DNA from: Anaspis maculata
Taxonomy: Eukaryota > Arthropoda > Insecta > Coleoptera > Scraptiidae
Direction: 5' to 3'
Assembly (NCBI GenBank): GCA_949128115.1
Contig: OX421962.1
Span: 8,030,262 to 8,094,261 of the forward strand
DNA: 64,000 nucleotides
A program made the translations under genes and the position numbers. Under the pieces are notes generated by a model. It had not been told where the DNA came from. It made no database searches and worked only from the letters and a program-made list of their open reading frames with translations. This document shows positions 3,038-58,609 of the stretch, piece by piece; positions within the stretch are counted from its first letter, which is position 1, and each line of letters opens with the position of its first letter.

Positions 3038-4477
3038 TAGTCCAGGAATTTTAGCTGTTAAAATCGCAAATAGCGTACAAAAATGAAAGCGAGCCGGATT
3101 TTTGTATATAAGCTCAGTAAAGCATGTAGTTTAACATAGTAAAAGTCCTCAAGAATCCGGTGTGAGCTTCGGCCGTTGTGGCCTCGAGAAGAACTTGAGG
3201 ATCAGTTTTTCGCATATATCTCGTGAACAATGGCACTTGGGAAGAAAGTGTTCGGTAAGAAATTGTTGAAAATTTTATTGTCTATAAGAAAGGTCCTTAC
3301 ACATTTCATCGTCAGTCCACTCCTTCTTCGTCAAAACACAAGAAAATTAAAATAATCCAGATGCTCGATGCTGAAGATTGTATGGACCTTGAGTTTTATG
3401 ATGGCGGAGTGCCGCCTCGTAGAGGTGTTGGTTGTTCCACTATTTCTTGATTGAAACTTGAAGCCATCAATACGAACTATGCCGGCGGCATATACAGGGT
3501 GAAATAAAAATAAAAAGTTGAACATTTGTACCTCAAGAACCAAAATAGGTGAAGACATGTAAATCGTCATAAATAATTCCGATTTCATGGTCATGAAGTC
3601 ATCGTAAACTTGAATTAGACATCTTGAGCCGTTCTTGAAATATCTTCAAAACACTGAAGTTGTTACCGGAAAAAATAATTTTTTCGTCTACTCATCAGAA
3701 AAAAAGTTGACTGTGTTTTTTTTTAAGTAGTTGGCCTAGAGAGTGTTTTTCACTATTATTTAATTTTGAATGTTATTCATCATTGTTTCGATTCAAAACA
3801 CCAAGCCTCGATTCAATATCTGAAGAATTACTGATATACGGAAAACTGGTTTTTTCTCGTAACGACTTCAGTCTTCTGAAGATATGTCAGAAACGGCTCA
3901 ACATATTTGATCCAAATTTACGACGACTTCATGACCATGAAATGAGAAATATTTCTGGCGATTTACATGTCTTCACCTATTTTGGTTCTTGAGGTACAAA
4001 TGTTCAACTTTTCATTTTTATTTCACCCTGTATATGCCGTCGGCATAGTTCGTATTGATGGCTTCAAGTTTCAATCAAGAAATAGTGGAACAACCAACAC
4101 CTCTACGAGGCGGCACTCCGCCATCATAAAACTCAAGGTCCATACAATCTTCAGCATCGAGCCTCTGGATTATTTTAATTTTCTTGTGTTTTGACGAAGA
4201 AGGAGTGAACTGACGATGAAATGTGTAAGGACCTTTCTTATAGACAATAAAATTTTCAACAATTTCTTCCCGAACACTTTCTTCCTAAGTGCCATTGTTC
4301 ACGAGATATATGCGAAAAACTGATCCTCAAGTTCTTCTCGAGGCCACAACGGCCGAAGCTCACACCGGATTCTTGAGGACTTTTACTATGTTGAACTACA
4401 TGCTTAACTGAGCTTATATACAAAAATCCGGCTCGCTTCCATTTTTGTTCGCTATTTTTTCTAAAATTCCTGGACTA
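3038..4477. repeat. 1.4-kb foldback element
   Basis: TAGTCCAGGAATTTTAG at the left end is matched by CTAAAATTCCTGGACTA at the right. The arms are complementary for about 550 bases each, passing through ACACCGGATTCTTGAGGAC near 4360 and its partner near 3150. Small ORFs on the two arms (for example near 3331-3594 and 3967-4194) are mirror images of non-coding arm sequence. I do not call them genes. Confidence 0.85.
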
Positions 4478-6088: not shown

Positions 6089-7071
6089 TTATGTTCCCGC
6101 GACCTATTAGTGAAGTTACAAGAACACAAAACAATTAAGAATGTGTTTCCCGAGGTGTTCCTCATCAAAATTACTGAGATTAACATATTATATAAAAACA
6201 ACCAGTGCACATGCCAAAACGTCATTCTCACAGAAACAGCAGAATGGCATATTCAACATAACAGAAGTTCTCAAAAGTCTACAGGGTGTCCCGTTTTTCA
6301 ACGCTCACTATGGGTATCTCGGAAACGGTGAGAGATACTCGGTTAAATTACAAAAAAGTTGCGCAATTTTATGGCTATTCCAAAAATGTCAAAATATCAG
6401 AGATATCTTTGTTAATTTTTGAAATATCCCCAAAAAACTGAAAAACGCCGAATTCCAAAAATTCAAATAACTTTTTTGTTATGACAGTTATTAATTTGAA
6501 AATTGGTATCCTGACATTTTCAAAGGTCCTTGGTCGACTGACGTCAATAATTTTTTCCTGCACCCACTAGTTTTTGAGATATGACAGTTAACTTAATTTT
6601 TTCTTATAAACACCGTATCATTTATCCACCCCATAAAACTCATCTTTTCTTTCCCTTTACAAAGATATGAAACACTCGTAGCATTTTTGTGAAAATAACC
6701 TGTGAATATTGAAAAAAACATTTCTGGGGCGAATAAATCTAGTTACCGGTTCAGTTGCCATGCTCTCGTGGCATAATAACAATGGCATTCGGTTGCCATG
6801 GTCGGTAGATTTTGGAAAAAGTTGAGTTACATTCCGTTTTTATGTATTTGATAATGATAATAGATAATGATGAAACAAATACAAAACCAAGTATAACACT
6901 AAATAACATCGCAATAGCAATAAACATTTATAATTTACAATTACTCGAAATGGGGTCCATTTTGCGGGGAACGCTCAAAGATCGAATTTGTGATTCATGA
7001 CAGAACATCTCTAAGCAACCAAGAGCTGGAAGCAAGGAGCTGATAATGCGTTTCAGTCAATTAATAACCCG

Positions 7072-7077
7072 CACGAT
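7072..7077. repeat. Target-site duplication, left copy (CACGAT)
   Basis: CACGAT directly precedes the AGTAGATAATGGGGG terminus. The same six bases directly follow the opposite terminus at 18344-18349. A 6-bp duplication is the size known for Polinton/Maverick integration. Confidence 0.85.
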
Positions 7078-7149
7078 AGTAGATAATGGGGGACCTTGGC
7101 GCACCCCCACTCCTCCTCCTTTAGGCCCCGCCCCCTTATTCTGAAGCCC

Positions 7150-8420
7150 CGCCCACCTGTCAGATTTTGACAGGTGACAGTTGACAGCTGTCATATGTCA
7201 GATTTTGACAGGTGACATTTGACAGCTGTCACATTTGACAGGTGACTTTTGACAGCTGTCACATTTGACAGGTGACGTTTGACAGCTGTCACATTTGACA
7301 GGTGACGTTTGACGGCTGTCAGATTTGACAGGTGACATTTGACAGCTGTCTAACTTGACAGGTGATGGCCGCCATGACAGTGGATGGAGAGCGGGAAATT
7401 TGAATTAGACAGCTGTCTCAATTGACAATTGACAGCCGTCAGATGATGGCCGCCATGACGGTTGAGGGAAGAGTGGGAAATTTGAATTTGAAATCTGACG
7501 TATGTGATAGGTGACAGCTGTCAGATTGACATTTGATACCTGTCAGATGATGGACGCCATGACAGTTGAGAAAAGAGCGGGAAATTTGGATTTGACAGGT
7601 GACGTACGTGACAGCTGACGTATGTGACAGGTGACAGCTGTCAGATTGACATTTGACACCTGTCAGATGATGGCAGCCATGACAGTTGAGAAAAGAGCGG
7701 GAAATTTGAAATAGACAGGTTACAGGTTTTTGACAAATGGTTGATGATGGACGCCATGACAGTTTTCGGAACTGTGCTATCTTCAAGCCTCCGCTAGATA
7801 GAGCTGCCTACTACAGGTTTCTAACTGTGATTTCCTCAAGCTTCCGCTAGATGGAGCCACTGGTATTAGAGGTTTCTAACTGTGATATCCGCAAGCCTCC
7901 GATGGATGGAACCACCCGGAAGTTTGTTGTAAAAGAGCGGGAAATTTGAATTTCAAACAAATTGGTGATTCTGATAGGTACCTACAGCTAACTTGTTCGC
8001 CAACGCGGGTTTCTAACTGTGGTATCCTCAAGTCTCAGCTAGATGGAACCACTTCATATATCAGTCCGTTTGTTGTGAATGAGCGGGAAATTCAAATTCG
8101 GTAGGCCATAGATATAGGTGACATTTGACATATGCCTTATTCAAATATGACGGGTGACAGATGATAGCCGCCATGACATTCAGAAAAAGAGCGGGTATTT
8201 TGAAATAGACAAATGACGTAGGTGACAAATGCTTGATGATGATCGCCATGACAGTTTCGGAACTGTGCTATCCTCAAGTCTCCACTAGATAGAGTTGCCT
8301 ACTACAAGTTCCTGACTGTCAGATGATGGCCGGCATGACAGTTTAGAGAAGAGCGGGAAATTTGAATTTCAAAACAGAGAGCGAGAAGTTTGAATTTGAC
8401 TCTCGCTTGATGGGGCAACC
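7150..8420. promoter_or_regulatory. Left-arm cluster of iterated motif modules
   Basis: At least six exact copies of the palindrome TGACAGCTGTCA occur here, several within a tandem 30-bp unit (about 7190-7370). About six copies of AGCGGGAAA (reverse TTTCCCGCT) recur, with one more near 9487. Most are followed by TTTGAAT and preceded by a GATGGCNGCCATGACAG-type block. A third recurring block is GCTAGATGG plus a CCAC tail. From general knowledge, TGACAG palindromes resemble TALE-homeodomain (TGIF/Meis) sites, TTTCCCGC resembles E2F sites and the third block resembles part of the CTCF motif. Binding is inferred only. The array could instead be replication or integrase binding sites, or plain satellite. 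Confidence 0.45.
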
Positions 8421-8785
8421 GGTATTACAGATTCCTAACTGTGATACTTACTCTCAAGCCTCCACTAGATTGAACCGTCTAATACGTCTGGCAGTTTGAT
8501 TCAAATATCTTGGCGCTAAATTCAAAGATCTAAACTGCTAAAAATAGCTAGGATGTGTGGACAAGAATTTTGAATGTGTCAGAATTCAATGATATCGATA
8601 ATATATTTGAGAAGATTTTGCCTTTATCTAAATACATACCTACTAAGGTTTGCGTTATGACAGATTTAAGTTCTATACATCTGAAAACAAAAAAAAAACA
8701 CGTTTATATCACACCCAGAAATTAGAATATATTTCTCACAAACTAAATAAACACTTATAATACATTTTTCATCATAATTGTCAAG

Positions 8786-9091
8786 TCAAATTTTGGCGAT
8801 ATCGAATATTGCGCACAGAGATCCGCGAATGGTGATAATTTTCTTCACTTCCAGATACATTTTGCCTCCGTGATTTGAATTGAAGTCCTCAATTGCAGCG
8901 TTATGAAATATTTCGCGATACCGTTTTGGTAGGTTGACTAAGAAGTCACCCAAATCTGCTACAACGGTGTCTCCATACCGTGTTGGGTGTCTTGATATTT
9001 TGTAGATCTTGTAATGGGTGCCTATTTCCAAAGTTGATAGTTTGATGAACTCCTTCAAGGCACCAGCGCGGCCTAGTTCCTCAAAATTCAT
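8786..9091 (-). CDS. Small protein, possible OB-fold, left-arm copy
   Basis: The ORF encodes 101 residues from an ATG at 9091, starting MNFEELGRAG. An in-frame GTG lies six codons upstream, but I use the ATG. The middle section has alternating hydrophobic strands with YKIYKI, RYGDTVVADL and VNLPKRY. This layout recalls small OB-fold single-strand DNA-binding proteins of DNA viruses and virus-like elements; the assignment is tentative. The right-arm copy at 16329-16634 encodes exactly the same protein. An AT-rich upstream spacer separates it from the next ORF. No frame damage is seen, in contrast to the capsid-like gene. Confidence 0.6.
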   Translation of the reverse strand: MNFEELGRAGALKEFIKLSTLEIGTHYKIYKISRHPTRYGDTVVADLGDFLVNLPKRYREIFHNAAIEDFNSNHGGKMYLEVKKIITIRGSLCAIFDIAKI

Positions 9092-9741
9092 AGTAAATCG
9101 AAACTTCACGATTTTGAAAAAACAAAATTGATATTAACGACGGATCTTCACAATGGCTACTGTAGTAGATCTTCTTTCAACCGAACTATTAATACCAGCA
9201 CTATCTCTGCCTCATTACACACAGGACAAAATCGTAATTCTCAATAAACCTGACTAGCTATTTTGTGTCTCTTTTTGTTTGGTGAAAAAGAATTCAAACC
9301 TCATCAAAATTTGAAGTAATGTTTTTCTGTTTCTGCATGTTTTTGTAGGTAGGTAGGTAGGTTATATCTACTGGTTATTTAATTCAAATAAAAACGACTG
9401 AAATGTTTCGTCAATGCGAGTTTCTGTGATATCCTCAAGCCGCCACTAGATGGAACCACCTCATATATCTGTCTGTTTGTTGTAAATGAGCGGGAAACTT
9501 GAATTCGATAGATAAAGGTGACATTAAATTCGTGATTCTGCAAGTAGGTACCTACAACTAACCTGTCCACCAATGCGATATTGCAAGGATGTTTTTTGTT
9601 GCATTATAATAAAAAACGAATAAACTTTTCACATTTTTACTAAAAATTTTCATCTATTCAGTTAGGTATTGTAGTTACAAAATAATTATTTATCCTAATA
9701 TACAGAGTTTACGCTGTGAAAATATGTGCAAAAGACCAACT

Positions 9742-10199
9742 TTAATTGATAGATTTGGAAAATTTCTCCAAAATATCTAGTAATTTCAGGAGCTCATCAT
9801 ATTTCTCAGAAATTAAATTCCATTCACTTTTGACCAGAGAAATTTCTGGATGTAGCCCGACAGAGAAATAAATGTCGTGAAGTTCTTGTTCTTTCCGAAA
9901 TTCCACTACTTTTCGACGTCCACTTCCATCAAAGTCAATATTTATGAATGGTAGGTTTTCAGTTGCTGGTATTGGAATGGAATGTTGCTGGTGTTGAGAA
10001 AACCGTCGATTTTCGTTTTGCAGCCTGATGTTTCGATATTTTTGAATACTTCCGGTGATATGAGAAGTCTTCCTCTGTTTCTTTCTTCAATGACTACACA
10101 TGGAACCATTTCAACCAAACAAGGTACTAATCGCTTCGAACCACTTTTGTTCAGTGGATATTCTGTTGACAAAGCATACAAATATTGAAGGAACTCCAT
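9742..10199 (-). pseudogene. Unknown small ORF, frame-broken, left-arm copy
   Basis: From an ATG at 10199 (MEFLQYLYAL) a reading frame of 85 codons runs to a stop at 9942. In a different frame the coding-like sequence continues (FINIDFDG, then a leucine-rich tail with ELLKLLDILEKF) to a stop at 9742. The tail looks like a short amphipathic helix. The same arrangement occurs in the right arm, so either the frame break predates the arm duplication or these are two overlapping small genes. The family is not recognised. Its position next to the capsid-like gene hints at a virion or maturation role, which is inference only. Confidence 0.45.
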
Positions 10200-10314
10200 G
10201 ATGCTCACTATGCTATGGGTCTTGACAGAATGATGTTTTTGAAGGTTCTTTTCCAATTTATAGGAGATTTTCGCGTTCCAAAGTGTAGGTTTGCGCCTTC
10301 TCTAGCCGAAACGT

Positions 10315-10830
10315 TTATAGGGAGACACTCTTTCGAACGATGCTGGTTAGTGGATTATATTCAATTATTCGATCGTGTATTATCAGATAGTAAGCAGTTG
10401 TATCATTGGGAAAAGCAGCGGATGCTTCAAATTCAAGCTTAACATCAACTGGACTTGTTTTTACAACTTCTGACTGCTTTGAACAATTACTTACAATTAA
10501 AGGGGCAATATCTTCAAAGTTTTGAAATGATAGAAGTGGATAGGTTACTTCATCGTTATAAAATGATTCTCTGAATTTGTAATATAAATTGTATGGCAAA
10601 GCATAGTAATTTTTGGCGAAGTCAATATACGCAGTTGTCTCGTTGGGAAAATTAGCGGAATCTTCAAATTTTCTTCAAACTTTTACATCAACCGGACTTG
10701 TTTTAACAACTTCTGACTGTTTTGAGCAGTCAATTACAAGGTAGGGGAGCGATTTCTTAGAAATATAGAAGTGGAAAAATTGGATAGGTTATTTCCACAA
10801 TCTGATTCTAGAAATTTGCAATACGAATCT
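10315..10830 (-). pseudogene. Double-jelly-roll capsid-like gene, truncated left copy
   Basis: Bases 10315-10628 encode about the last 100 residues of the capsid-like protein found at 14259-15105, ending with IIEYNPLTSIVRK and a stop. Upstream, 10629-10830 holds a second, more diverged copy of part of the same gene. Matching phrases to SKQSEVVKTSPVDV and the FPN-TT block are broken by stops and shifts. The two are fused head to tail at the arm boundary. The N-terminal half is missing and no start codon remains. This copy cannot make a capsid-like protein. Confidence 0.7.
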
Positions 10831-10835
10831 GCGTT

Positions 10836-11519
10836 TCATAAAATAATCCCCGATTCTCTCAAGCTTCTCTCAATACGTAAAATTTCTTGCGAGTGGTCAG
10901 ATGTTTTATCATAGAATAAGGTTTCTAGCTGTTCAACCAGTTTATTTGCATTTATATCTTTCACACCTCCACCAGTTTTACTTTTAGCTTTGTTTTGAGA
11001 TTTAGACAATAAAGGTTCAATAACCGTTTTGTACTTTGGATTTCTCTTCACTTTTTCACAAATATTTTCGGTCGAAATGTAACGTTTTCGAAGTGCATTG
11101 GTCGTTTTTAAAATCGTACAATATGATTTTTTATCTGCTTCTTGAATCACTCCCAAATTAGGATCTTTCTTGAAGATCAGTTCAGCCAGGCCTGGAGTAA
11201 TGTCATAAGTTCGATCATCCACTTCTAGCTGATTATCTTTGAAATTTATAACAGAATCCCCAAGAATATAACGTCTCCCTGAATATCTAACGCCCGACGT
11301 TAAATCCATTGTACTGCAATCACTGCCACTTTTGAGTTTGGAGAGGTAATAGGAAACATCTAGATGTTGTTTGCGCGTGTTTGCTGTTGATGATGACGGT
11401 TGCTCTATGCGTATTTCCTGACTGTATGATTGCGACTCATTTTCATCCCCAGCACCTCTCATCTCATCATCATCACCATCATCATCGTCACCATCATCAT
11501 CATCATCATTTTCATTATT

Positions 11520-11550
<31 letters not shown>

Positions 11551-12293
11551 GTATCATCATCATTATCATCATCCTTATCATCATCATAATCATCATAGTC
11601 CACAGATGCTTCTGCTTGCGATAATAATTGTATTGGATTTGACTGTGAGGTAGAAGCATGAGTCAGTGGATTTTGTGGGTTCACTTCTGAATTATTTACT
11701 TCCAAGTGTATTGGTGATGCAGGTGGGGTATAGTATTTCGAAGGTGTAGCTGCCTCATCAACGCTGAATAAATTCTTCTCTGATTTGCAGTCATGTTCAA
11801 CGTTGGAGCTCTTTGAATTTCCATAGAGATATTCCACAGTTGATTTGTTGGAAGTATCAGCTCGAACCATATTATTCTCTTCCGATCTGAGTATGATATC
11901 CGGATGACGTTTTATGAAGCCCCTACACCAAACTAAGGATGCCGTCTTATTGCTCTCCCAAGAGTTAGGATATGGCTTGTTCAGTATCCTCCCATGTTGG
12001 AATACCATTTCAGAAAATTGGATGCGGGTCAAACCATTCAACATCTTTGACAACCCTTTAACGTAATCACTAAATATCATTTCCTCGTCCTTTGAGAAGA
12101 CTGCCCTTTTCACAGTATTTGGAGCATTAACATACACATCTCCTACTCCATCTTTTTCTCTGGCTCTTTCCACCATACGTTGTAGTGTAGATTTTGCAAG
12201 GCCATACGTCCGAGCGATTGATCTAACCGACTGCCCGCGAAGGACATCGCCTATAGCATTCGCCATTCTTTCATGAGTGTCTGGAACTTTCAT
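10836..12293 (-). CDS. HTH and acidic-region protein of the virus-like element
   Basis: The intact frame encodes 485 residues from an ATG at 12293 (MKVPDTHERM). A TTG nine codons upstream is in frame, but the ATG is the natural start. Residues about 9-47 form a pipsqueak/CENP-B-type helix-turn-helix (DVLRGQSVRSIARTYGLAKS). Residues about 60-140 resemble the second DNA-binding part of pogo/Tigger-like proteins (SLVWCRGFIKRHPDI). Residues about 232-277 are almost pure aspartate, encoded by an ATC/TCA microsatellite. Residues about 325-485 form a separate domain (YSGRRYILGDS, TPGLAELIF, TTNALRKRY) that I recall as an uncharacterised family, DUF8207, seen near jelly-roll genes in insect genomes; this is unverified. 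No DDE catalytic core is visible, so it is more likely a DNA-binding or regulatory protein than a transposase. It lies in the single-copy loop. Confidence 0.75.
11463..11592. repeat. ATC/TCA trinucleotide microsatellite in coding sequence
   Basis: A run of TCA/ATC triplets encodes the poly-aspartate segment of the HTH protein on the minus strand. The histidine-, isoleucine- and methionine-rich ORFs in other frames are by-products of this repeat. Confidence 0.85.
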
Positions 12294-12445
12294 GTTTTCC
12301 GGAACACCTTCGTCCTTCAACAGTCATACACCGTTTACGACTGATTATTAATGAATAATATTGGATTTATATACTCTCTTACCGGCCTATTCTGAAAACA
12401 CTTTCAGTTGTCTCAATCTGATCATACTTTGTGCTGTCCCAATGT

Positions 12446-14242
12446 ATTTAGCAGTGTCTCACTGTTTTGTGTCCCACTGTTCCATTTTGTGTCTTAATTT
12501 TTAAGCAGTGTCCCACTGTCCCATTATGTGTCCCAATTTACAAGGAGTGTCCCAGTGTCCCATGATTGGTCCTAATTTATAAGCAGTGTCCCACTGTCCC
12601 ATCATGTGCCCTGATTCACAAGCAGTGTCCCACTGCCTCATCATGTGCCCCAATTTATAAGCAGTGTCCCACTGTCCCATCATGTGTTTCAATTCATAAG
12701 CAGTGTCCCACTGTCCCATTATGTGTACCAATTCACAAGCAGTGTCCCACTGTCCCATAATGTGTCCCAATTAACAAGCGGTGTCCCACTGTCCCATTTT
12801 GTGTTCCAATGTATAAGCAGTGTCCCACTGTCCCATTATGTGTCCCAGTTTATAAGCAGTGTCCCACTGTCCCATTATGTGTCCCAATTTACAAGCAGTG
12901 TCTCACTGTCCCATTATGTGTCCCAATTTACAAGCAGTGTCCCACTGTCCCATCATGTGCCCTAATTCACAAGCAGTGTCTCACTGCCTCATCATGTGTC
13001 CCAATTTATAAGCAGTGTCCCACTGTCCCATCATGTGTTTCAATTCATAAGCAGTGTCCCACTGTCCCATTATGTGTCCCAATTCACAAGCAGTATCCCA
13101 CTGTCTCATTATGTGTCCCAATTCATAAGCAATGTCCCACTGTCCCATTATGTGTCCCAATTTACAAGCAGTGTCCCACTGTCTCATTATGTGTCCCAAT
13201 TCACAAGCAGTGTCCCACTGTCTTATCATGTGTCCCAATTTATAAGCAGTGTCCCACTGTCCCATTATGTGTCCCAATTTATAAGCAGTGTCCCACTGTC
13301 CCATCATGTGTCCCAATGTATAAGCAGTGTCCCATTGTCCCATTATGTGTCCCAATTCACAAGCAGTGTCCCACTGTCCCATGATGTGTCCCAATTCATA
13401 AGCAATGTCCCACTGTCCCATTATGTGTCTCAAATTACAAGCAGTGTCCCACTGTCTCATTATGTGTCCCAATTCACAAGCAGTGTCCCACTGTCCCATC
13501 ATGTGTCCCAATTTATAAGCAGTGTCCCACTGTCCCATCATGTGTCCCAATTTACAAGCAGTGTCCCACTGTCCCATTATGTGTCCCAATGTATAAGCCG
13601 TGTCCCACTGTCCCATTATGTGTCCCAATTCACAAGCAGTGTCCCACTGTCCCATTATGTGTCCCAATTCATAAGCAATGTCCCACCGTCCCATTATGTG
13701 TCCCAATTTACAAGCAGTGTCCCACTGTCCCATTATGTGTCCCAATTCACGAGCAGTGTCGCACTGTCTTATCATGTGTCCCAATTTATAAGCAGTGTCC
13801 CACTGTCCCATTATGTGTCCCAATTTATAAGCAGTGTCCCACTGTCCCATTATGTGTCCTAATTTATAAGCAGTGTCCCACTGTCCCATCATGTGTCCCA
13901 ATTCACAAGCAGTGTCCCACTGTCCCATTATGTGTCCCAATTTATAAGTAATGTCCCACTGTCCCATTGTGTGTCCCAATTTATAAGCAGTGTCCCACTG
14001 TCCCATTATGTGTCCCAATTTATAAGCAGTGTCCCACTGTCCCATCATGTGTCCTAATTTATAAGCAGTGTCCCACTATCCCATTATGTGTCCCAATTTA
14101 CAAGCAGTGTCCCACCGTCCCATTATGTGTCCCAATTTACAAGCAGTGTCCCACTGTCCCATTATGTGTCCCAATTCACGAGCAGTGTCGCACTGTCTTA
14201 TCATGTGTCCCAATTTATAAGCAGTGTCCCACTGTCTCATGG
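12446..14242. repeat. 39-bp satellite array in the element loop
   Basis: About 45 copies of a 39-bp unit run on, typically containing GTGTCCCACTGTCCCATTAT and ending CAATTTATAAGCA. Variants recur at larger spacings: TTCATAAGCAATG at 13122, 13395 and 13668 (273 bp, 7 units); a GCCTCATCATG variant at about 12631 and 12982 (351 bp, 9 units); CGAGCAGTGTCGC at 13750 and 14179 (429 bp, 11 units). This shows higher-order structure from segmental amplification. Because 39 is a multiple of three, long open frames persist in several frames on both strands (up to 355 codons). I treat them as artefacts. Confidence 0.92.
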
Positions 14243-14258
14243 ATGGTGCAGACCACAA

Positions 14259-15105
14259 AGTAGTTCGCTTGACATCGTGAAAAATGGCTTCTTCAGTGTT
14301 TGCTTACCGCTGTCCAATCTGATTGGCTTTGCAGAGGATTATCGGAAAGTTATAATAAACGTTAAACAAGAATTAATACTTTTGAGATCTAGAAATCAGG
14401 ATAATTGTTATGTATCACCTGTATTGGTACAAAATGAAGAGCCCCCCCAAAGCAACAATCGAGATAACAAAATTGTCTTGGAACGTTCCGTATGTTGGAG
14501 TTGATGATCATCAGAGACTTTATTTGATGCAATATTTGAAGACCGAAAAAATTATTTCAGTCGGTTTTCGAAGTTGGGAGCTTTTTGAATATCCAGTACT
14601 ACCATCATCTCGAAAACAAGTATGGAGTATCAAGACTTCAACTCAAATGGAGAAACCTCGCTATGTGATTCTGGCTTTCCAAACAGGAAGAAATAATACA
14701 GTGAAAAAAGACACTAGCATATTCGATCATTGCAACATCAGCAATGTTAAATTATTTCTCAATTCTAAATCATACCCGTATGATGATTTAAATATTGACT
14801 TCACCAAAAATTACTATGCTTTGCCATACAATTTATATTACAAATTCCGAGAATCATTTTATAACGATGAAGTAACCTATCCACTTCTATCATTCGAAAA
14901 TTTTAAAGATATTGCCCCTTTAATTGTAATTGATTGTTCAAAGCAGTCAGAAGTTGTAAAAACAAGTCCAGTTGATGTTAAGCTTGAATTTGAAGGATCC
15001 GCTGCTTTTCCCAACGATACAACTGCTTACTGTCTGATAATACACGATCGAATAATTGAATATAATCCACTAACCAGCATCGTTCGAAAAAGAGTCTCCC
15101 TATAA
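14259..15105 (+). pseudogene. Double-jelly-roll capsid-like gene, right copy, frameshifted
   Basis: Two frames together cover a capsid-like protein. The first runs from about 14259 to 14450 (NGFFSVCLPLSNLIGF, AEDYRKVII). The second runs from 14410 to the stop at 15105 (PYVGVDDHQRL, SWELFEYPVLP, FDHCNISNVKLFLNS, IIEYNPLTSIVRK). The switch falls near a run of seven C at about 14443, which suggests a single-base indel. I recognise the family as the double-jelly-roll capsid-like proteins common in insect virus-like elements, from memory. The true N-terminus is absent because the satellite abuts the gene at 14242. Only the part after 14792 is shared with the left arm. The product would be non-functional as it stands. 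Confidence 0.75.
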
Positions 15106-15220
15106 ACGTTTCGGCTAGAGAAGGCGCAAACCTACACTTTGGAACGCGAAAATCTCCTATAAATTGGAAAAGAACCTTCAAAGACATCATTCTGTCAAGA
15201 CCCATAGCATAGTGAGCATC

Positions 15221-15678
15221 ATGGAGTTCCTTCAATATTTGTATGCTTTGTCAACAGAATATCCACTGAACAAAAGTGGTTCGAAGCGATTAGTACCTTG
15301 TTTGGTTGAAATGGTTCCATGTGTAGTCATTGAAGAAAGAAACAGAGGAAGACTTCTCATATCACCGGAAGTATTCAAAAATATCGAAACATCAGGCTGC
15401 AAAACGAAAATCGACGGTTTTCTCAACACCAGCAACATTCCATTCCAATACCAGCAACTGAAAACCTACCATTCATAAATATTGACTTTGATGGAAGTGG
15501 ACGTCGAAAAGTAGTGGAATTTCGGAAAGAACAAGAACTTCACGACATTTATTTCTCTGTCGGGCTACATCCAGAAATTTCTCTGGTCAAAAGTGAATGG
15601 AATTTAATTTCTGAGAAATATGATGAGCTCCTGAAATTACTAGATATTTTGGAGAAATTTTCCAAATCTATCAATTAA
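15221..15678 (+). pseudogene. Unknown small ORF, frame-broken, right-arm copy
   Basis: This is the mirror of 9742-10199. The ATG at 15221 opens 85 codons to a stop at 15478. A second frame, ending at 15678, continues with FINIDFDG and the helical ELLKLLDILEKF tail. The same frame discontinuity exists in both arms. It lies about 115 bases downstream of the capsid-like gene on the same strand, so the two could share a transcript. No family recognised. Confidence 0.45.
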
Positions 15679-16328
15679 AGTTGGTCTTTTGCACATATTT
15701 TCACAGCGTAAACTCTGTATATTAGGATAAATAATTATTTTGTAACTACAATACCTAACTGAATAGATGAAAATTTTTAGTAAAAATGTGAAAAGTTTAT
15801 TCGTTTTTTATTATAATGCAACAAAAAACATCCTTGCAATATCGCATTGGTGGACAGGTTAGTTGTAGGTACCTACTTGCAGAATCACGAATTTAATGTC
15901 ACCTTTATCTATCGAATTCAAGTTTCCCGCTCATTTACAACAAACAGACAGATATATGAGGTGGTTCCATCTAGTGGCGGCTTGAGGATATCACAGAAAC
16001 TCGCATTGACGAAACATTTCAGTCGTTTTTATTTGAATTAAATAACCAGTAGATATAACCTACCTACCTACCTACAAAAACATGCAGAAACAGAAAAACA
16101 TTACTTCAAATTTTGATGAGGTTTGAATTCTTTTTCACCAAACAAAAAGAGACACAAAATAGCTAGTCAGGTTTATTGAGAATTACGATTTTGTCCTGTG
16201 TGTAATGAGGCAGAGATAGTGCTGGTATTAATAGTTCGGTTGAAAGAAGATCTACTACAGTAGCCATTGTGAAGTTCCGTCGTTAATATCAATTTTGTTT
16301 TTTCAAAATCGTGAAGTTTCGATTTACT

Positions 16329-16634
16329 ATGAATTTTGAGGAACTAGGCCGCGCTGGTGCCTTGAAGGAGTTCATCAAACTATCAACTTTGGAAATAGGC
16401 ACCCATTACAAGATCTACAAAATATCAAGACACCCAACACGGTATGGAGACACCGTTGTAGCAGATTTGGGTGACTTCTTAGTCAACCTACCAAAACGGT
16501 ATCGCGAAATATTTCATAACGCTGCAATTGAGGACTTCAATTCAAATCACGGAGGCAAAATGTATCTGGAAGTGAAGAAAATTATCACCATTCGCGGATC
16601 TCTGTGCGCAATATTCGATATCGCCAAAATTTGA
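16329..16634 (+). CDS. Small protein, possible OB-fold, right-arm copy
   Basis: The ORF encodes 101 residues from the ATG at 16329 and is identical in protein sequence to the left-arm copy at 8786-9091. The RYGDTV and NLPKRY blocks are typical of the strand-turn layout of OB-fold ssDNA-binding proteins, but the assignment rests on pattern only. About 150 bases of AT-rich sequence upstream could hold a promoter. No frame damage, which suggests either recent arm homogenisation or selection. Confidence 0.6.
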   Translation: MNFEELGRAGALKEFIKLSTLEIGTHYKIYKISRHPTRYGDTVVADLGDFLVNLPKRYREIFHNAAIEDFNSNHGGKMYLEVKKIITIRGSLCAIFDIAKI

Positions 16635-17009
16635 CTTGACAATTATGATGAAAAATGTATTATAAGTGTTTATTTAGTTTGTGAGAAATATATTCTAATT
16701 TCTGGGTGTGATATAAACGTGTTTTTTTTTTTGTTTTCAGATGTATAGAACTTAAATCTGTCATAACGCAAACCTTAGTAGGTATGTATTTAGATAAAGG
16801 CAAAATCTTCTCAAATATATTATCGATATCATTGAATTCTGACACATTCAAAATTCTTGTCCACACATCCTAGCTATTTTTAGCAGTTTAGATCTTTGAA
16901 TTTAGCGCCAAGATATTTGAATCAAACTGCCAGACGTATTAGACGGTTCAATCTAGTGGAGGCTTGAGAGTAAGTATCACAGTTAGGAATCTGTAATACC
17001 GGTTGCCCC

Positions 17010-18270
17010 ATCAAGCGAGAGTCAAATTCAAACTTCTCGCTCTCTGTTTTGAAATTCAAATTTCCCGCTCTTCTCTAAACTGTCATGCCGGCCATCATCT
17101 GACAGTCAGGAACTTGTAGTAGGCAACTCTATCTAGTGGAGACTTGAGGATAGCGCAGTTCCGAAACTGTCATGGCGATCATCATCAAGCATTTGTCACC
17201 TACGTCATTTGTCTATTTCAAAATACCCGCTCTTTTTCTGAATGTCATGGCGGCTATCATCTGTCACCCGTCATATTTGAATAAGGCATATGTCAAATGT
17301 CACCTATATCTATGGCCTACCGAATTTGAATTTCCCGCTCATTCACAACAAACGGACTGATATATGAAGTGGTTCCATCTAGCTGAGACTTGAGGATACC
17401 ACAGTTAGAAACCCGCGTTGGCGAACAAGTTAGCTGTAGGTACCTATCAGAATCACCAATTTGTTTGAAATTCAAATTTCCCGCTCTTTTACAACAAACT
17501 TCCGGGTGGTTCCATCCATCGGAGGCTTGCGGATATCACAGTTAGAAACCTCTAATACCAGTGGCTCCATCTAGCGGAAGCTTGAGGAAATCACAGTTAG
17601 AAACCTGTAGTAGGCAGCTCTATCTAGCGGAGGCTTGAAGATAGCACAGTTCCGAAAACTGTCATGGCGTCCATCATCAACCATTTGTCAAAAACCTGTA
17701 ACCTGTCTATTTCAAATTTCCCGCTCTTTTCTCAACTGTCATGGCTGCCATCATCTGACAGGTGTCAAATGTCAATCTGACAGCTGTCACCTGTCACATA
17801 CGTCAGCTGTCACGTACGTCACCTGTCAAATCCAAATTTCCCGCTCTTTTCTCAACTGTCATGGCGTCCATCATCTGACAGGTATCAAATGTCAATCTGA
17901 CAGCTGTCACCTATCACATACGTCAGATTTCAAATTCAAATTTCCCGCTCTTCCCTCAACCGTCATGGCGGCCATCATCTGACGGCTGTCAATTGTCAAT
18001 TGAGACAGCTGTCTAATTCAAATTTCCCGCTCTCCATCCACTGTCATGGCGGCCATCACCTGTCAAGTTAGACAGCTGTCAAATGTCACCTGTCAAATCT
18101 GACAGCCGTCAAACGTCACCTGTCAAATGTGACAGCTGTCAAACGTCACCTGTCAAATGTGACAGCTGTCAAAAGTCACCTGTCAAATGTGACAGCTGTC
18201 AAATGTCACCTGTCAAAATCTGACATATGACAGCTGTCAACTGTCACCTGTCAAAATATGACAGGTGGGC
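17010..18270. promoter_or_regulatory. Right-arm cluster of iterated motif modules
   Basis: This mirrors the left cluster. It has repeated TTTCCCGCTC, TGACAGCTGTCA and CTGTCATGGCNGCCATCATC blocks, with the 30-bp tandem units at about 18062-18250 ahead of the GC-rich terminus. The two clusters flank the gene-bearing interior symmetrically, as expected for cis sites used at both ends of an element. Confidence 0.45.
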
Positions 18271-18343
18271 GGGGCTTCAGAATAAGGGGGCGGGGCCTAA
18301 AGGAGGAGGAGTGGGGGTGCGCCAAGGTCCCCCATTATCTACT

Positions 18344-18349
18344 CACGAT
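18344..18349. repeat. Target-site duplication, right copy (CACGAT)
   Basis: The same six bases as at 7072-7077, directly abutting the right terminus ATTATCTACT. Confidence 0.85.
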
Positions 18350-18686: not shown

Positions 18687-19783
18687 TATGTTTCTTGAGA
18701 TATGACATTTCGTTTCTGACAATGGGAAATTTTTCGAATCTGACAAGCGCTCTGTCGTGTATTTATTTGATTTCAGCATGGATTTCATTATTTCACTTGT
18801 TCTTACCCTTGTTCTTACCAATAAGTGTGTTATATGTAGTGGAAAACTGAGAAGATACTTACAGAAATGGTTCAAGGGTGTTGTGTCGCTCTATGCGAGT
18901 CGAGAATAAGACGAATACACCCAGCATAACCATGCACCGGTTCACGAAAGACCCAAACTTGATGGAAGTGTGGCTGCACCAGCACCAGCAGGGATCACGC
19001 TGCACCAGACACGTGCATCTTACTACGAAAAAACTCTATTACTTCGTCCATTAAAAACTCCCTTATGGGCTCTAGTGACTTTCCCCACATGATAATGGGA
19101 ACAGTATAGCTATCCGATTCAAAATTCCCGCAAAAGTCAGAAACGAAACGTCCAAACGTCATAAACGTCAAAACGTCAAAGGTGACCTCGAAAAACCATG
19201 TATTTTCTATCTCCTAAAATTGGAAAGGTCAATTCGGACAATTGTAAATTATGAATGTTTATTGCTATTGCTATGTCATTTTATGTTATACTTAGTTCTG
19301 TATTTGTTTTATTGTTATTTATTATCATTATCAAATACACAAAAACGGGATTTAGCTCAACTTTTTCCAAAATCAACAGCTAGACCATAGCAACCAAATG
19401 CCATTGTTCATATGCCACAAAAGCATCGCAACCGAAGCGGTAACTCGATTTTTTTGCCTCAGAAACAGTTTTTCCAATTTTTACAGGTTATTTTGACAAA
19501 AAAGCTACAAGTGTTTTATATCTTTGTAAAGAGAAAGAAAAGATGAGTTTTATGGGGTGTATAAATGATATGGTGTCCGTAAGAAAAAATGAAGTTAACT
19601 GTCATATCTCAAAAACTAGTAAGCGCAGGAAAAAATTAATAACGTCAGTTGATCAAGGACCTTGAAAAATGTCAAGATATCAATTCTCAAATTGATATTT
19701 GTCATAATAAAGAAATGATTTGAAATCTTCAAATTCGGCATTTTTCAGTTTTTTTGGGATATTTCAGAAATGACAGAAGATAT

Positions 19784-19902
19784 CAATCAATCAATCAATC
19801 AATCTTTATTCGTGCTATTATGTACAAAATAACATTTACACCCGTCAAAACATAACTAAAAAAAATGAGATAAGGTAATAAAATAGGTAAGCGAGGTAGG
19901 CG
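19784..19902 (-). mobile_element. Truncated non-LTR retroelement tail
   Basis: A 119-bp insertion in the right arm of the outer foldback is absent from the left arm. It begins with five AATC repeats on the plus strand (a GATT-type 3' tail on the minus strand). It is flanked by AGATAT at 19778-19783 and 19903-19908. A simple-repeat tail plus a target duplication is typical of a 5'-truncated CR1-like LINE or a SINE. Confidence 0.6.
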
Positions 19903-20015
19903 AGATATTTGAGATAGTCATAAAATTGTGCAACTTTTTTGTAATTTAACCGACTTTGTATCTCTTCCCGTTCCCGAGATACCAATAGTGAGCGTTGAAA
20001 AACCGGACACCTGTA

Positions 20016-23437: not shown

Positions 23438-25645
23438 TTAGTCCTTTTCTACCTCCATTTTGACGGGCGCTTCCTCTGCCACTACACTTGCACGCTCGAC
23501 GGCTTGCTTCTCGCAGCTTGGAGCATCCGTCTCCGTGGCGTCGTGACTCCTCAAGTGCTTGTTCAAATTTCCTCTATGCTTCGAGCGAAACGAGCACTTG
23601 GCGCAGTCGAACCAAGTTACCTCTTCGTCGGCGGCGTGCTTGACCATGTGCAGCCTCAGGTGCGCCTTCTTTTTCGCCCGGTAATCGCACTCGGTGCAAC
23701 TGAACCAGGCGATTTCGTCCGGCGTCGCGTGCGTCAGCATGTGCCTGTTCAGGTACAGCTTCAGCTTGGCGCGGTAAGGGCATTCGGTGCAGTACACCCA
23801 GTCGATCTCTTCCGGCTTGGCGTGCGTCACCATGTGCCGCTTCAGCTGGACGTTCTGGTAGCATCGATACGGGCATTCCGTGCAAGCGAACGTTTTGACT
23901 TCTTCCGGCTTTCGACCGGCCTGACTTGAACTCGACGACTTCATTTCTTCTACATGCGTCAGCATGTGCCTTTTCAATTCCTTCCTCAACTTAGCTCGGT
24001 AAGAGCATTTTTCGCAATTGAACCAGTCGATTTCTTCCGGCGCGGCGTGCGTCAGCATGTGCCGCTTCAATTCTTTCCTCAGCTTGGCTCGGTAAGAGCA
24101 TTTCTCGCAATTGAACCAGCTGATTTCTTCCGGCGCGGCGTGCGTCAGCATGTGCCGCTTTAAGTATCTTTCCATTTTTGCTCGGTACGGGCATTCCTTG
24201 CAGTAGAACCAGTTGACTTCTTCTGGAACGGCGTGCGTCAGCATGTGCCGTTTCAGGTACAATTCCACTTTGGCTTTGTACGGGCATTCGGTGCAATGGA
24301 ACCAGGCGATTTCGTCGTCGCTGGCGTGCGTCAGCAGGTGCCTCTTCACGCTGTCCTTCTGTTTGGCTCGGTAAGAGCATTCGGTGCATTCGTGCCATTT
24401 GATGCCGTCGGAAGCGGCGTGCGTCAGCATGTGTCTCGACAAGTTGCCGCGCTGCGTCGTTCGGTACGAGCATTCGTTGCAGCTGAACCATTCGACTTCG
24501 TCGTCTGCGGCGTGCTTCCGCATGTGCAGCTTCAGGAGTCGTTTTTCCTTGGAGCGGTACGAACAGCTGGTGCAGTCGAAATAGTTGTTTTCTTCTGGAG
24601 CATCAGGAGTAGCCGTGGCGACATGCGTCAGCTTGTGCTGGTTCAATTGGCTTTTTTGCTTGGTGCGATAAGAACACGCGGTACAGTTGAACCAAGTTAC
24701 GTCTTCGCTCATGGCGTGAGTCAGCAAGTGCCTTTTGAGATACGTCTTATGTTTGGCTCGATACGAGCATTTGGTGCAATTCAGCGACTCGATTTCGTCA
24801 TCTGCGGTATGAGTTGCCATGTGTCGTTTAAAATGTCGGCTGTCTTTAGCTTGATAAGAACACTTTTGGCAATTGAACCAGATTCCTTGAGCTGCGGCAT
24901 GTTTCAACTTGTGCTTTGCCATGCTTGCTTTTTCTACACCTAGATACGAACATTCCGTACATTTTAACCAATCAATTTTCCGCTTTGCAGCATGAGCCAG
25001 CTTGTGCCTTGACAAGTTTCCTTTTCGTCTAGTTCGATAAGAACATTTCGTACAAGTGAACTCTTTGCTCTTCATGTTGTTATGTTCTAATCTCTGATAT
25101 TCCAGCGTTTCAGGTTTGTTCCTTCGAGCACAATGGAATTCATTATTAGAATCAATAACTATCACATTTGGTTTTTTAACGTAATTCCCGCAATATTCCA
25201 GCAAAGTGTCTTGTATGGCAGTATCAGTTTCTAGATTTTCAACTATCATATAACATGAATCAAGATGTTCAATAAAAGATAAACATGAATGTCCTTTAAA
25301 TCCGCAACTATCGCATCGGTACCTTGGAGCTTCTTTATAAAATGCACTGTTTTCAACAGCTTCATTTTCGACAGTTTTACTATCAACAGTTTTAGTTCCA
25401 TGTTTGCTTACATAATGTTCATATAAATCAAGCTTATTGTATGTTTTGGAACTGCAGCAAGGACAAGGATACAGTTCCGGTACTTCTATGGGGCAAAACT
25501 GTCTGGCTACATTATTTCTGATTCTGTGGTTCCTTTGGACGTGATGATCATGTTGGAATGGCCAAACTGCTAGATACGAACACTGTGCGCAGCAGAGTGC
25601 AGGGAGGGCTTCGGGTGGCTCTAACCTATAATTTTCATTGTTCAT
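23438..25645 (-). CDS. C2H2 zinc-finger protein, 16 tandem fingers
   Basis: The single uninterrupted frame encodes 735 residues from an ATG at 25645 (MNNENYRLEPP). An in-frame GTG at 25672 gives a longer ORF but is not a eukaryotic start. Sixteen canonical CxxC-x12-HxxxH fingers run from about residue 198 to 701, mostly of the form C-x-x-C-S/P-Y-R-A-K. The N-terminal region has three degenerate finger-like motifs. Linkers are about 10 residues (AAPEEIDWFN type) and lack the TGEKP motif. The fingers resemble REST/ZNF-type CxxCxY repeats, so the protein is probably a nuclear DNA-binding protein; targets are unknown. Fingers 11 and 12 are identical in sequence over the 21-residue finger, at a 93-bp DNA spacing near 24001 and 24094. 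That and the higher GC of the 3' half point to recent tandem expansion. The C-terminal tail is acidic. An upstream non-coding exon cannot be excluded. Confidence 0.88.
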   Translation of the reverse strand: MNNENYRLEPPEALPALCCAQCSYLAVWPFQHDHHVQRNHRIRNNVARQFCPIEVPELYPCPCCSSKTYNKLDLYEHYVSKHGTKTVDSKTVENEAVENSAFYKEAPRYRCDSCGFKGHSCLSFIEHLDSCYMIVENLETDTAIQDTLLEYCGNYVKKPNVIVIDSNNEFHCARRNKPETLEYQRLEHNNMKSKEFTCTKCSYRTRRKGNLSRHKLAHAAKRKIDWLKCTECSYLGVEKASMAKHKLKHAAAQGIWFNCQKCSYQAKDSRHFKRHMATHTADDEIESLNCTKCSYRAKHKTYLKRHLLTHAMSEDVTWFNCTACSYRTKQKSQLNQHKLTHVATATPDAPEENNYFDCTSCSYRSKEKRLLKLHMRKHAADDEVEWFSCNECSYRTTQRGNLSRHMLTHAASDGIKWHECTECSYRAKQKDSVKRHLLTHASDDEIAWFHCTECPYKAKVELYLKRHMLTHAVPEEVNWFYCKECPYRAKMERYLKRHMLTHAAPEEISWFNCEKCSYRAKLRKELKRHMLTHAAPEEIDWFNCEKCSYRAKLRKELKRHMLTHVEEMKSSSSSQAGRKPEEVKTFACTECPYRCYQNVQLKRHMVTHAKPEEIDWVYCTECPYRAKLKLYLNRHMLTHATPDEIAWFSCTECDYRAKKKAHLRLHMVKHAADEEVTWFDCAKCSFRSKHRGNLNKHLRSHDATETDAPSCEKQAVERASVVAEEAPVKMEVEKD

Positions 25646-26010
25646 TAAGGAGAAAATTATGAATAAATTCACACCCCACTCACATTTTATGGCCTAAGCA
25701 ATCCTTCACGTAATCACTGTTGTATTTTCTTCAGTATTTTGGTACTTTTCTCCAGGTGAATACAACTTCCTGCATTGACGGAAGAGGTGGTAAATGTTTT
25801 CACGTTTCAGAGCTCAGCCATTACAAAAGCACGACGCCCTCGCCCTGTGTATTTGAATGTGTATATTTGGTTGCATACCTTGAACTCCTTAAAGCAACTA
25901 GTTACATTATCTAAAAACCATTTATTCTGCTGCGAAAAGATAAAGAAAAGAACATTTTGAAGAAATAATGTTCATTATGCACTATACCTACTTACCCTAG
26001 GTACCTACCT
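25646..26010. other. Upstream flank of the zinc-finger gene
   Basis: Presumed promoter side of the minus-strand zinc-finger gene. No clear TATA box or CpG cluster is evident. A short GGTACCTACC simple sequence is near 25998. Confidence 0.35.
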
Positions 26011-27811: not shown

Positions 27812-28222
27812 TATATGAACTTTGAAAAAAAAACTGTAGAAAAGAGGTAAATTGTATTGTAGGCAAACGGAGCAGACAATATCGATAATTTTTGACGTCG
27901 ACATCAGTTGAGCTGAAACTGTTGACAATTAATGTCAGAATATGACATTTGTTTTGCCTTTTGATTTGAGAATATCACCAACATGAAGAAATAAGAAATT
28001 CCCAGTTTCCACTAATTCATTTGAACTGGATTGTTTCAGTTGCTTCTTTTCAAAATTGTGAAAAATCCCTTTTTGGCTGCAAAACTCCCTTTTTCCCTTT
28101 GGAACCCCAAAATTCCCTAAAAAGGGAAAATTCCTTCGAGTTGCGGGAACACTGCTGAACAATCCTATCTATATTTGGTGACTTGTGACTGAGAAAATAA
28201 GTACCTACCAAAGAGGTTCATT
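27812..28222. other. No gene seen
   Basis: Contains AAATCCCTTTTTGGCTGC-type sequence (28070-28140), which resembles 26930-27000 and may be part of an older repeat. No coding signal. Confidence 0.4.
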
Positions 28223-28526
28223 GGGTGCTTTCCACCTAGCTCCAAGTTTGGTACACCTTCCATTTGCGCACGTGCGGGTTCCAAACGGTGCTTTCCATCT
28301 ACGTGCTCTTACCTGGTTTTGTGCCGTCCCGTGGATCACCTAAAATTTTGTGCCATCGAAAGGCACACCGAAAACGGATGCGAAAAATGACGTACCGTCA
28401 GCTGTAATCCAGCACTCCGTTGTCATATGTCTCTCTCTTTATCGTTTTATCCATGCATCCATGTTTTATTTTATTTCTCTGCAGGGATAACATACGATCG
28501 ATTAAGATTTACGCTGCCATTTCTTT

Positions 28527-28758
28527 TATAAGAAATCAAACTCGTTGGAACAATTATACGTGTATTAATTGTTAACCAATAATTGTAATTCCCACAACAA
28601 GAGTAAACTTATAATATAATGTGAGTAATGCTGCACGTTGCTTGCATCACCGCTCGTTCTACGCTCTGACTGCCGAGTGAGTCCCTCGTTCCTCCTCGCC
28701 TACCGCCGCGCATCGGGTCGGTCTGTTCGGAAGCCACGTTTACACTGCCGCGCTTACA
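28527..28758 (-). repeat. LTR, 3' copy of the retrotransposon
   Basis: This 232-bp repeat looks identical to 34038-34269. In element orientation it begins TGTAAGCGCGG and ends TTTCTTATA, so it has TG at the 5' end but TA where CA is usual. The sequence next to it inside the element (28759-28797) is partly purine-rich on the minus strand and may hold the polypurine tract. Confidence 0.93.
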
Positions 28759-29105
28759 GTCGGCCAAGCTACCAATCTCCGCGTCCCCGTGGAGCCATCA
28801 ACCTGCAAAACACAACAATAATTAGATTATTTCTAGTCTAACTTGGTCTTACAATGTGGCTCTTTTAGCCACGCAATGTGTCATCTAACATCCACATCGC
28901 AAGCAATGAAGACACGTCGCCACGTTGGCATCACCCTCATTCGAGTGACTGTCTTGTCAATAATAAAGTGAGGGCTTGCTTGGGCAAACTACCTCATTTG
29001 ACCCCTTTGGTCCGTACATGATCATGTATTGTCTCGAGCGTCTTGTAGGTCACGTCGACCAAGAAGTAGGAGTCTTTGACTCGTACTACTTTTCGTTTTA
29101 CTGTG

Positions 29106-33812: not shown

Positions 33813-34037
33813 CAGCAAAGCAATACAAGAACGCCGTGTGACCAAAAGAACTTCCAAACACACGTAAGGACTAAAAACCACGCACCACGCACAAAAACAA
33901 TATACTGTGTCGCCGCCACAGCAGGCTCGCACACTGCAATCCGCCGACGTAGCACTCACGATTGTACTAGCTTCGCATTTTCGGCCAAAAACACCAGTCA
34001 CTTGCGAATCTACACGTGGTAGATCCCGCCGCTGCTC

Positions 34038-34269
34038 TATAAGAAATCAAACTCGTTGGAACAATTATACGTGTATTAATTGTTAACCAATAATTGTAAT
34101 TCCCACAACAAGAGTAAACTTATAATATAATGTGAGTAATGCTGCACGTTGCTTGCATCACCGCTCGTTCTACGCTCTGACTGCCGAGTGAGTCCCTCGT
34201 TCCTCCTCGCCTACCGCCGCGCATCGGGTCGGTCTGTTCGGAAGCCACGTTTACACTGCCGCGCTTACA
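34038..34269 (-). repeat. LTR, 5' copy of the retrotransposon
   Basis: 232 bp, identical by eye to 28527-28758. It abuts the CTTT duplication at 34270-34273. As the upstream LTR of a minus-strand element it should hold the promoter, although I see no unambiguous TATA box. Confidence 0.93.
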
Positions 34270-38204: not shown

Positions 38205-38207
38205 ATT

Positions 38208-43193: not shown

Positions 43194-43203
43194 CCTAATA
43201 GTA

Positions 43204-58602: not shown

Positions 58603-58609
58603 GACAGGC

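What the first reader, a model, noticed from the sequence alone, without database searches (positions are those of the whole stretch)
7072..18349. Palindromic Polinton-like element with 3.55-kb gene-bearing arms and a 6-bp target duplication
Seen: perfect AGTAGATAATGGGGG termini, CACGAT on both sides, arms of 3,551 and 3,552 bp, a loop of about 4.2 kb, and a capsid-like gene. Known: Polintons/Mavericks and adintoviruses have AG termini, 6-bp duplications and jelly-roll capsid genes, but inverted repeats usually limited to the ends and free of genes. Inferred: template switching or hairpin replication extended the inverted repeats over the 3' half of the gene set, creating a non-autonomous, virus-derived giant foldback. 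I know of no described class with this layout.
Basis: partly seen in the sequence, partly recalled or inferred. Interest (0 to 1): 0.88.

Follow-up and report, generated by a model that had tools for sequence, protein, structure and literature searches.

The report
Palindromic virus-like transposon with gene-bearing arms
An 11.3-kb insertion in what is likely an insect genome has two 3.55-kb mirror-image arms that carry the end of a predicted virus-type capsid gene and other open reading frames; it is likely a crippled relative of the virus-like Polinton/Maverick transposons in which one end was copied onto the other, which would make it a natural example of how such elements turn into palindromes.

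Summary
Identical AGTAGATAATGGGGG tips lie at 7078 and 18343, with CACGAT outside both; the arms are 3,551 and 3,552 bp, the loop 4,163 bp. The right half holds most of a double-jelly-roll capsid gene (PF21738, E=8e-77) without its first ~122 residues and with a frameshift. The left arm holds only its 3' end, beside an older, 75% identical remnant. Tips, 6-bp duplication and capsid domain fit Polinton/Maverick; no polymerase, integrase or ATPase was found in the frames scanned. The arms differ at 6 positions in their outer 3,165 bp but at 13 in the inner 386 bp, so the inner ends are older than the last evening-out of the arms, or come from a second source. The element sits inside a resident palindromic repeat of another family.

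Best reading: a defective, non-autonomous Polinton relative; one end was copied onto the other and joined inside the capsid gene, and the outer arms were later homogenised. Algal Polinton-like viruses with kilobase repeats and Galileo transposons with stretched repeats make it a new variant, not a new class. One copy was seen: the genome search did not complete, so mobility as a palindrome and the host species are not shown.

The parts
7072..7077 (.). target-site duplication, left copy (CACGAT)
18344..18349 (.). target-site duplication, right copy (CACGAT)
7078..10628 (+). left inverted arm, 3,551 bp, tip AGTAGATAATGGGGG
14792..18343 (-). right inverted arm, 3,552 bp, same tip
7158..7720 (+). 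subterminal tandem repeats of the left arm (30-, 82-, 104-, 120-bp units rich in TGACAG/CTGTCA)
17701..18263 (-). subterminal tandem repeats of the right arm
8786..9109 (-). 107-aa open frame, left arm, pointing to the left tip; protein identical to the right-arm copy
16311..16634 (+). 107-aa open frame, right arm; no family match, no homologue found
9942..10256 (-). 104-aa open frame of unknown function, left arm; one residue differs from the right-arm copy
15164..15478 (+). 104-aa open frame, right arm; a second open frame 15334-15675 overlaps its end (possibly one broken gene)
10315..10628 (-). capsid-gene copy A: last ~104 codons, 13 differences in 314 bases from the right copy, 8 of them amino-acid changing
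10628..10823 (-). capsid-gene copy B: older remnant, 75% identical to 14836-15029
10836..12320 (-). 494-codon open frame (from a TTG; first ATG at codon 10): Psq-type helix-turn-helix (PF05225, E=4e-6), acidic stretch, C-terminal part without family
12469..14240 (.). 39-bp minisatellite, about 45 copies, abutting the cut 5' end of the right capsid gene
14241..15105 (+). capsid gene (PF21738), residues 123 onward of a 404-aa homologue, in two frames

Best explanation
This is an 11,266-bp palindromic insertion with AGT...ACT tips, a 6-bp flanking duplication and 3.55-kb inverted arms that carry the end of a predicted capsid gene, and it is likely a defective Polinton/Maverick relative in which one end of the element was copied onto the other by break repair or template switching. 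Shown: tips, duplication, arms, capsid domain, broken capsid gene, no polymerase/integrase/ATPase domain in the frames scanned, step in arm divergence. Inferred: (1) an ancestor had the order [Psq gene]-[capsid]-[unknown gene]-[107-aa gene]-[tip] at one end; (2) synthesis started in the short terminal repeat of the other end, ran inwards through these genes into the capsid gene and was joined, with about 1 bp of overlap, to a capsid remnant (copy B); (3) the outer ~3.2 kb of the arms was later evened out by arm-to-arm gene conversion, leaving the inner ~0.3 kb about 4% diverged; (4) the palindrome likely existed before this insertion and was integrated as a unit by a Polinton integrase supplied in trans.
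For: Tips and 6-bp duplication match what is reported for vertebrate Mavericks: (AG)3 or (AGT)2 end motifs and 6-bp duplications (PMC8097293, passages). Double-jelly-roll domain. The gene frames named in 'parts' read leftwards in the left half and rightwards in the right half, i.e. two half genomes head to head. The junction of copy A to copy B is not at the homologous position but 237 bp off, with about 1 bp overlap: end joining inside a homologous gene. Divergence step 6/3165 vs 13/386. Against 16 homologues chosen from the 120 listed, the left copy carries at four sites a residue seen in 0 of 16 where the right has the commonest one (K 9, I 15, D 15, C 16 of 16); the reverse holds at one site (G in 0 of 16, left A in 6): the left fragment seems to have drifted more. 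The 494-codon Psq frame is still open although neutral decay by 2.15% (about half the 4.1% between the capsid fragments) would leave it open with probability 0.02-0.26 in a simulation, favouring an insertion younger than that divergence.
Against: Only one copy seen; movement as a palindrome rests on indirect arguments. The polarity contrast is 4 against 1 (two-sided binomial p = 0.375, worked by hand), three further sites are undecided, so it is weak. 8 of 13 differences being amino-acid changing is close to the 75% expected without any constraint, so selection on either copy is not shown. The Psq frame could be under selection for other reasons. The 4% could come from two parent strains instead of age. 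No polymerase, integrase or ATPase links the element to Polintons; PF21738 was not tied to a solved capsid (0 hits at E <= 10) and structure prediction never ran.
Confidence: 0.5

Rival explanations
1. In-place formation: an ordinary Polinton-like element inserted first, and its short terminal repeat was later extended inwards on the chromosome by repair from the opposite end, as argued for Galileo; the palindrome never moved.
For: The 6-bp duplication would be the same under this model. Galileo copies with the longest repeats (up to 1,260 bp) are non-autonomous and recruited internal sequence, with repair from another repeat proposed (PMC3573991, passages). Palindrome arms in chromosomes are evened out over kilobases (PMC3723533, passages).
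Against: The Psq frame should have decayed while the inner arms drifted 4% (probability open 0.02-0.26), unless selected or unless the arms come from two sources.
Confidence: 0.25
2. Snap-back dimer: a replicating linear viral genome produced a head-to-head inverted duplication of one end (like copy-back defective genomes or adenovirus symmetric recombinants, both recalled), which then integrated.
For: Divergent half-genome layout with the same terminal tract at both ends; the genes not found would have lain outside the duplicated part (inferred).
Against: The two halves differ inside: the left has the Psq gene and copy B, the right the minisatellite and a longer capsid gene. The arm edge lies inside the capsid gene next to a diverged capsid remnant, which a plain snap-back does not predict.
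Confidence: 0.14
3. A non-Polinton DNA transposon with long internally repetitive terminal repeats captured pieces of a virus capsid gene.
For: No Polinton enzyme was found; subterminal tandem repeats rich in TGACAG resemble foldback-type repeats; the window holds several other palindromic elements.
Against: AGT tips plus a 6-bp duplication plus a capsid gene is the Polinton combination; the local palindromic elements looked at have other tips.
Confidence: 0.08
4. Assembly or library artefact (chimeric inverted reads).
For: No reads could be inspected; the flanks also hold an inverted repeat.
Against: Same 6-mer next to both tips and 19 arm differences clustered at the inner end; the flanking inverted repeat is only 85-86% alike, lies at unequal distances and has ends of its own.
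Confidence: 0.03

Closest known systems
Polinton/Maverick elements (Eupolintoviridae, formerly Adintoviridae; PMC12451622, passages)
   Same: AGT tips, 6-bp duplication, double-jelly-roll capsid gene
   Different: No polymerase, integrase, ATPase or protease found; intact vertebrate Mavericks are 12.7-24.6 kb with repeats of 46-1,447 bp, mean 402 (PMC8097293, passages), against an 11.3-kb element with 3,551-bp repeats that carry genes here
Polinton-like viruses of cryptophytes and chrysophytes
   Same: Terminal repeats of hundreds to thousands of bases and 4-6-bp duplications are reported; repeats of 0.1-8 kb were admitted by the filter (PMC12220804, passages). Long terminal repeats were also noted in the first Polinton-like viruses (PMC4642659, passages)
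   Different: Protist hosts, elements counted as complete; gene-bearing arms were not mentioned in the passages seen
Galileo / Foldback transposons of Drosophila
   Same: Long internally repetitive inverted repeats, stretched most in non-autonomous copies by recruiting internal sequence (PMC3573991, passages)
   Different: P superfamily; longest Galileo repeat there 1,260 bp; a transposase, not virus genes, in full copies
Adenovirus type 12 symmetric recombinants (SYREC)
   Same: Recalled: a palindromic defective genome with one viral end at both termini, in a virus replicated from its ends
   Different: Recalled only; none of the 15 papers listed (of 574) holds the word SYREC; not integrated transposons
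Human Y-chromosome palindromes
   Same: Gene-bearing inverted arms kept alike by gene conversion, inferred minimum tracts up to 9,023 bp (PMC3723533, passages)
   Different: Far larger, not mobile

Membership tests
Polinton/Maverick | 6-bp target-site duplication | tested here: met
   CACGAT both sides
Polinton/Maverick | inverted repeats beginning AG or AGT | tested here: met
   AGTAGATAATGGGGG; published vertebrate motifs (AG)3, (AGT)2 (PMC8097293); here AGTAGA, so the second triplet differs
Polinton/Maverick | double-jelly-roll major capsid gene | tested here: met
   PF21738 E=8e-77, but gene broken; the fold itself was not modelled and no solved capsid matched
Polinton/Maverick | protein-primed PolB, retroviral-type integrase, packaging ATPase, protease | tested here: not met
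   no such domain in the 12 frames or pieces scanned; not scanned: left-arm mirror frames, minisatellite frames, antisense frames and short ones
Polinton/Maverick | autonomous relative with same tips | tested here: inconclusive
   tip 22-mer absent from viral contigs and genome contigs; own genome not searchable
Foldback/Galileo-type element | long, internally repetitive inverted repeats | tested here: met
Foldback/Galileo-type element | transposase of the family | tested here: not met
   no catalytic transposase domain among the 12 scanned frames or pieces; only helix-turn-helix matches in the Psq frame, some of transposase type and below Pfam's cut-off
Eupolintoviridae (adintovirus) | PolB with OTU-like domain and chromodomain integrase | tested here: not met
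   definition from PMC11071296 (passages); no such domain in the frames scanned

The most novel reading that the evidence does not exclude
A lineage of palindromic Polinton satellites: elements with two mirror-image, gene-bearing ends that move and replicate on the enzymes of full Polintons, keep their arms alike each time they are copied, and arose while one capsid copy was still working, so that a virus-type genome lived for a time in palindromic form.
Probability: 0.15. Interest if true: 0.8.

Novelty: new variant of a known kind. Interest (0 to 1): 0.5.

Why it matters
Polintons sit between transposons and viruses. An element caught with one end copied over the other, with a readable junction and a sharp step in arm divergence, would show a route from virus-like element to giant foldback and gives a testable record of how long terminal repeats grow and are kept alike. 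If several copies with different 6-bp duplications exist, it would be a satellite that parasitises Polintons.

Tried and rejected
Rejected: that the inverted flanks 6280-6942 / 19240-20015 (85-86%) are an outer part of the element; their ends are TACAGGGTGTCC / TACAGGTGTCC, like the palindromes at 43202-44248 and 49937-51128, so they are taken as a resident repeat into which the element inserted. Rejected: that GTAGATAATGGGGG-like sites near 43461, 43975 and 50777 mark further copies; they lie inside longer palindromes of that kind, and a BLASTN of left arm and loop found nothing at E <= 1e-6 elsewhere in the window. Led nowhere: capsid relatives in viral contigs and genome contigs; 107-aa frame and Psq C-terminal part in viral contigs; protein search with the Psq frame, where only the 7,991 candidates sharing most words were scored and 2 weak hits covered 2-3% of the query, probably its acidic stretch; 107-aa frame, 2 candidates and no hit; PDB profile of the capsid family 0 hits, PDB with the Psq N-terminal part and the 107-aa frame nothing below E = 0.08; NCBIfam and PHROGs nothing credible; Rfam and tRNA none; a PubMed Central search for the Pfam accession and name 0 papers. 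The first capsid tree contained a wrongly framed row for the left fragment; it was repeated without that row. I recalled, but could not test, that the 107-aa frame and the Psq C-terminal part look like proteins common in insect virus-like elements.
Full report
OBSERVATION. The element spans 7078-18343 (11,266 bp). Its two tips are the same 15 bases, AGTAGATAATGGGGG, inverted, and CACGAT lies directly outside each. The arms, 7078-10628 and 14792-18343, align over 3,552 columns at 99.47%, with 19 differences in all, one of them an indel. Six lie in 7078-10242 (3,165 bp) and thirteen in 10243-10628 (386 bp), Fisher p = 3.6e-9, an eighteenfold difference in rate. The alignment was run 32 bases past the arm ends; its 22 further differences there are outside the arms and were left out of the count.

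CONTENT. The outer ~1.45 kb of each arm is repetitive: 37 of the 39 TGACAG/CTGTCA words of the left arm lie in 7078-8530, against 43 in the 52.7 kb outside the element, in tandem units of 30, 82, 104 and 120 bp. Inside follow a 107-aa frame, the same in both arms, and a 104-aa frame, one residue different, with an overlapping second frame; neither has a family match. Then comes the 3' end of a capsid gene. In the right half the capsid gene goes on past the arm edge to 14241, where it meets a 39-bp minisatellite of about 45 copies (12469-14240). Pfam PF21738, double jelly roll-like domain, matches at 8e-77 (positions 114-316 of 316) and, in another frame, at 5e-15 (positions 64-110). Against homologue P0001 (404 aa) the two pieces align with residues 123-199 and 178-402. 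So the gene lacks its first ~122 codons and carries one net frameshift. In the left half there are two capsid remnants in tandem: copy A, 10315-10628, and copy B, 10628-10823, 75% identical to 14836-15029. Beyond them is a 494-codon open frame (from a TTG; first ATG at codon 10) with a Psq-type helix-turn-helix, an acidic run and an unassigned C-terminal part. No polymerase, integrase, ATPase or protease domain was found in the 12 frames or pieces scanned. Not scanned were left-arm mirror frames, minisatellite frames, antisense frames and short ones.

RELATIVES. Of 559 candidates, 462 proteins match the capsid piece at E <= 0.001; 120 were listed, and those listed with a species name are insects (Halyomorpha, Rhodnius, Daktulosphaira, Cotesia, Aphidius, Nasonia, Hermetia and others). 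All 17 rows of the alignment made from 16 of them and the window match PF21738 and no other Pfam family at E <= 0.01. In a quick tree of 121 rows the window copy falls in a supported set of seven (SH-aLRT 99) with P0001-P0006, P0002 being Halyomorpha halys. This suggests an insect host, perhaps a bug, but the host was not identified. No relative was found in viral contigs or genome contigs.

SURROUNDINGS. The element is nested. Left 6280-6942 and right 19240-20015 are inverted copies of each other (85-86%) with TACAGGGTGTCC / TACAGGTGTCC ends. Palindromes at 43202-44248 and 49937-51128 have like ends. Palindromic repeats are common in this window, so the habit may belong to the host; but those looked at have other tips, and no arm or loop sequence of the element recurs elsewhere in the window at E <= 1e-6. 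One oddity is left: near-copies of the 15-base tip lie inside two of these palindromes.

HOW IT CAME ABOUT. Shown: the inner edge of the left arm (10628) joins the capsid gene at the place matching 14792 to copy B at the place matching 15029, i.e. 237 bp out of register, with about 1 bp of overlap. This is what end joining or a failed annealing leaves, not a crossover at equal positions. Shown: the inner capsid fragment is 4.1% diverged (13 of 314 bases), the rest of the arms 0.19%. Of the 13 differences 8 change an amino acid, where 75% would be expected without constraint. Against 16 homologues the left copy carries an unseen residue at four sites where the right has the commonest; the reverse holds at one, and three are undecided; this is suggestive only. 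Inferred: synthesis from one end ran inwards through the downstream genes of the other end into the capsid gene and was joined to copy B; later, gene conversion evened out the outer arms but not the inner edge. Conversion over kilobases in palindromes is documented (PMC3723533, passages). Inferred with less weight: the palindrome is older than this insertion, since in a simulation the Psq frame would stay open with probability only 0.26 (substitutions alone) to 0.02 (with indels) after 2.15% neutral decay. If the 4% stems from two parent strains, or if the frame is under selection, this argument fails.

KNOWN KINDS. Intact vertebrate Mavericks have repeats of 46-1,447 bp (mean 402) and 6-bp duplications (PMC8097293, passages). 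The repeats here are about 2.5 times the longest of those and carry genes. Algal Polinton-like viruses with repeats of hundreds to thousands of bases are reported (PMC12220804, passages). Stretched repeats in non-autonomous Galileo copies are a close parallel in process (PMC3573991, passages). Adenovirus symmetric recombinants are recalled only (one search listed 15 of 574 papers, none with the word SYREC). In ten answered searches, of which I saw the listings and, for the papers cited, passages, I saw no paper describing a palindromic Polinton. Four of the listings were cut short, and the library lacks most subscription journals.

VERDICT. The description is confirmed and the family reading is likely, but membership is not complete because the defining enzymes were not found. 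It works like a non-autonomous foldback derived from a Polinton relative. New variant of a known kind, interest 0.5. The novel reading (a moving palindromic satellite lineage) is open and hinges on a genome-wide search that could not be run.

Noticed in passing
6280-6942 and 19240-20015: Inverted flanks (85-86%) of a resident palindromic repeat with TACAGGGTGTCC-like ends, into whose spacer the element inserted; the right copy has about 117 extra bases near 19785-19901.
   Followed up: yes
43202-44248 and 49937-51128: Two full palindromes of about 1.05 and 1.2 kb with TACAGGGTGT-like ends; both contain near-copies of the element's tip (CGTAGATAATGGGGG at 43461) at inner positions. Five matches with up to 3 mismatches in the window, two of them the element's own tips, against 1.25 expected (3 of 100 shuffles reach 5); unexplained.
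   Followed up: partly
57821-62300: Another large foldback: arms of about 1.9 kb (88%) with 118-bp tandem arrays and tetranucleotide runs, ends AACAAGCGAA.
   Followed up: partly
28527-34269: Gypsy-type LTR retrotransposon with identical 232-bp LTRs and a 1,631-aa frame; its flanks 28219-28526 and 34270-34418 match a contiguous inverted copy at 38207-38659 (both about 99.3%) overlapping by 4 bases, which looks like an empty-site copy with a 4-bp duplication.
   Followed up: partly
3038-3690 and 3835-4477; 486-794 and 948-1256; 35890-36852: Further inverted-repeat elements; palindromic repeats are common in this window.
   Followed up: no
10836-12320: Open 494-codon frame joining a Psq helix-turn-helix to an acidic run and an unassigned C-terminal part; it may be the element's own DNA-binding protein or a captured gene.
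   Followed up: partly
48797-49441; 23438-25672: Host-type coding sequence: ribosomal protein S2 domain (PF00318; mitochondrial version recalled) and a C2H2 zinc-finger array.
   Followed up: no
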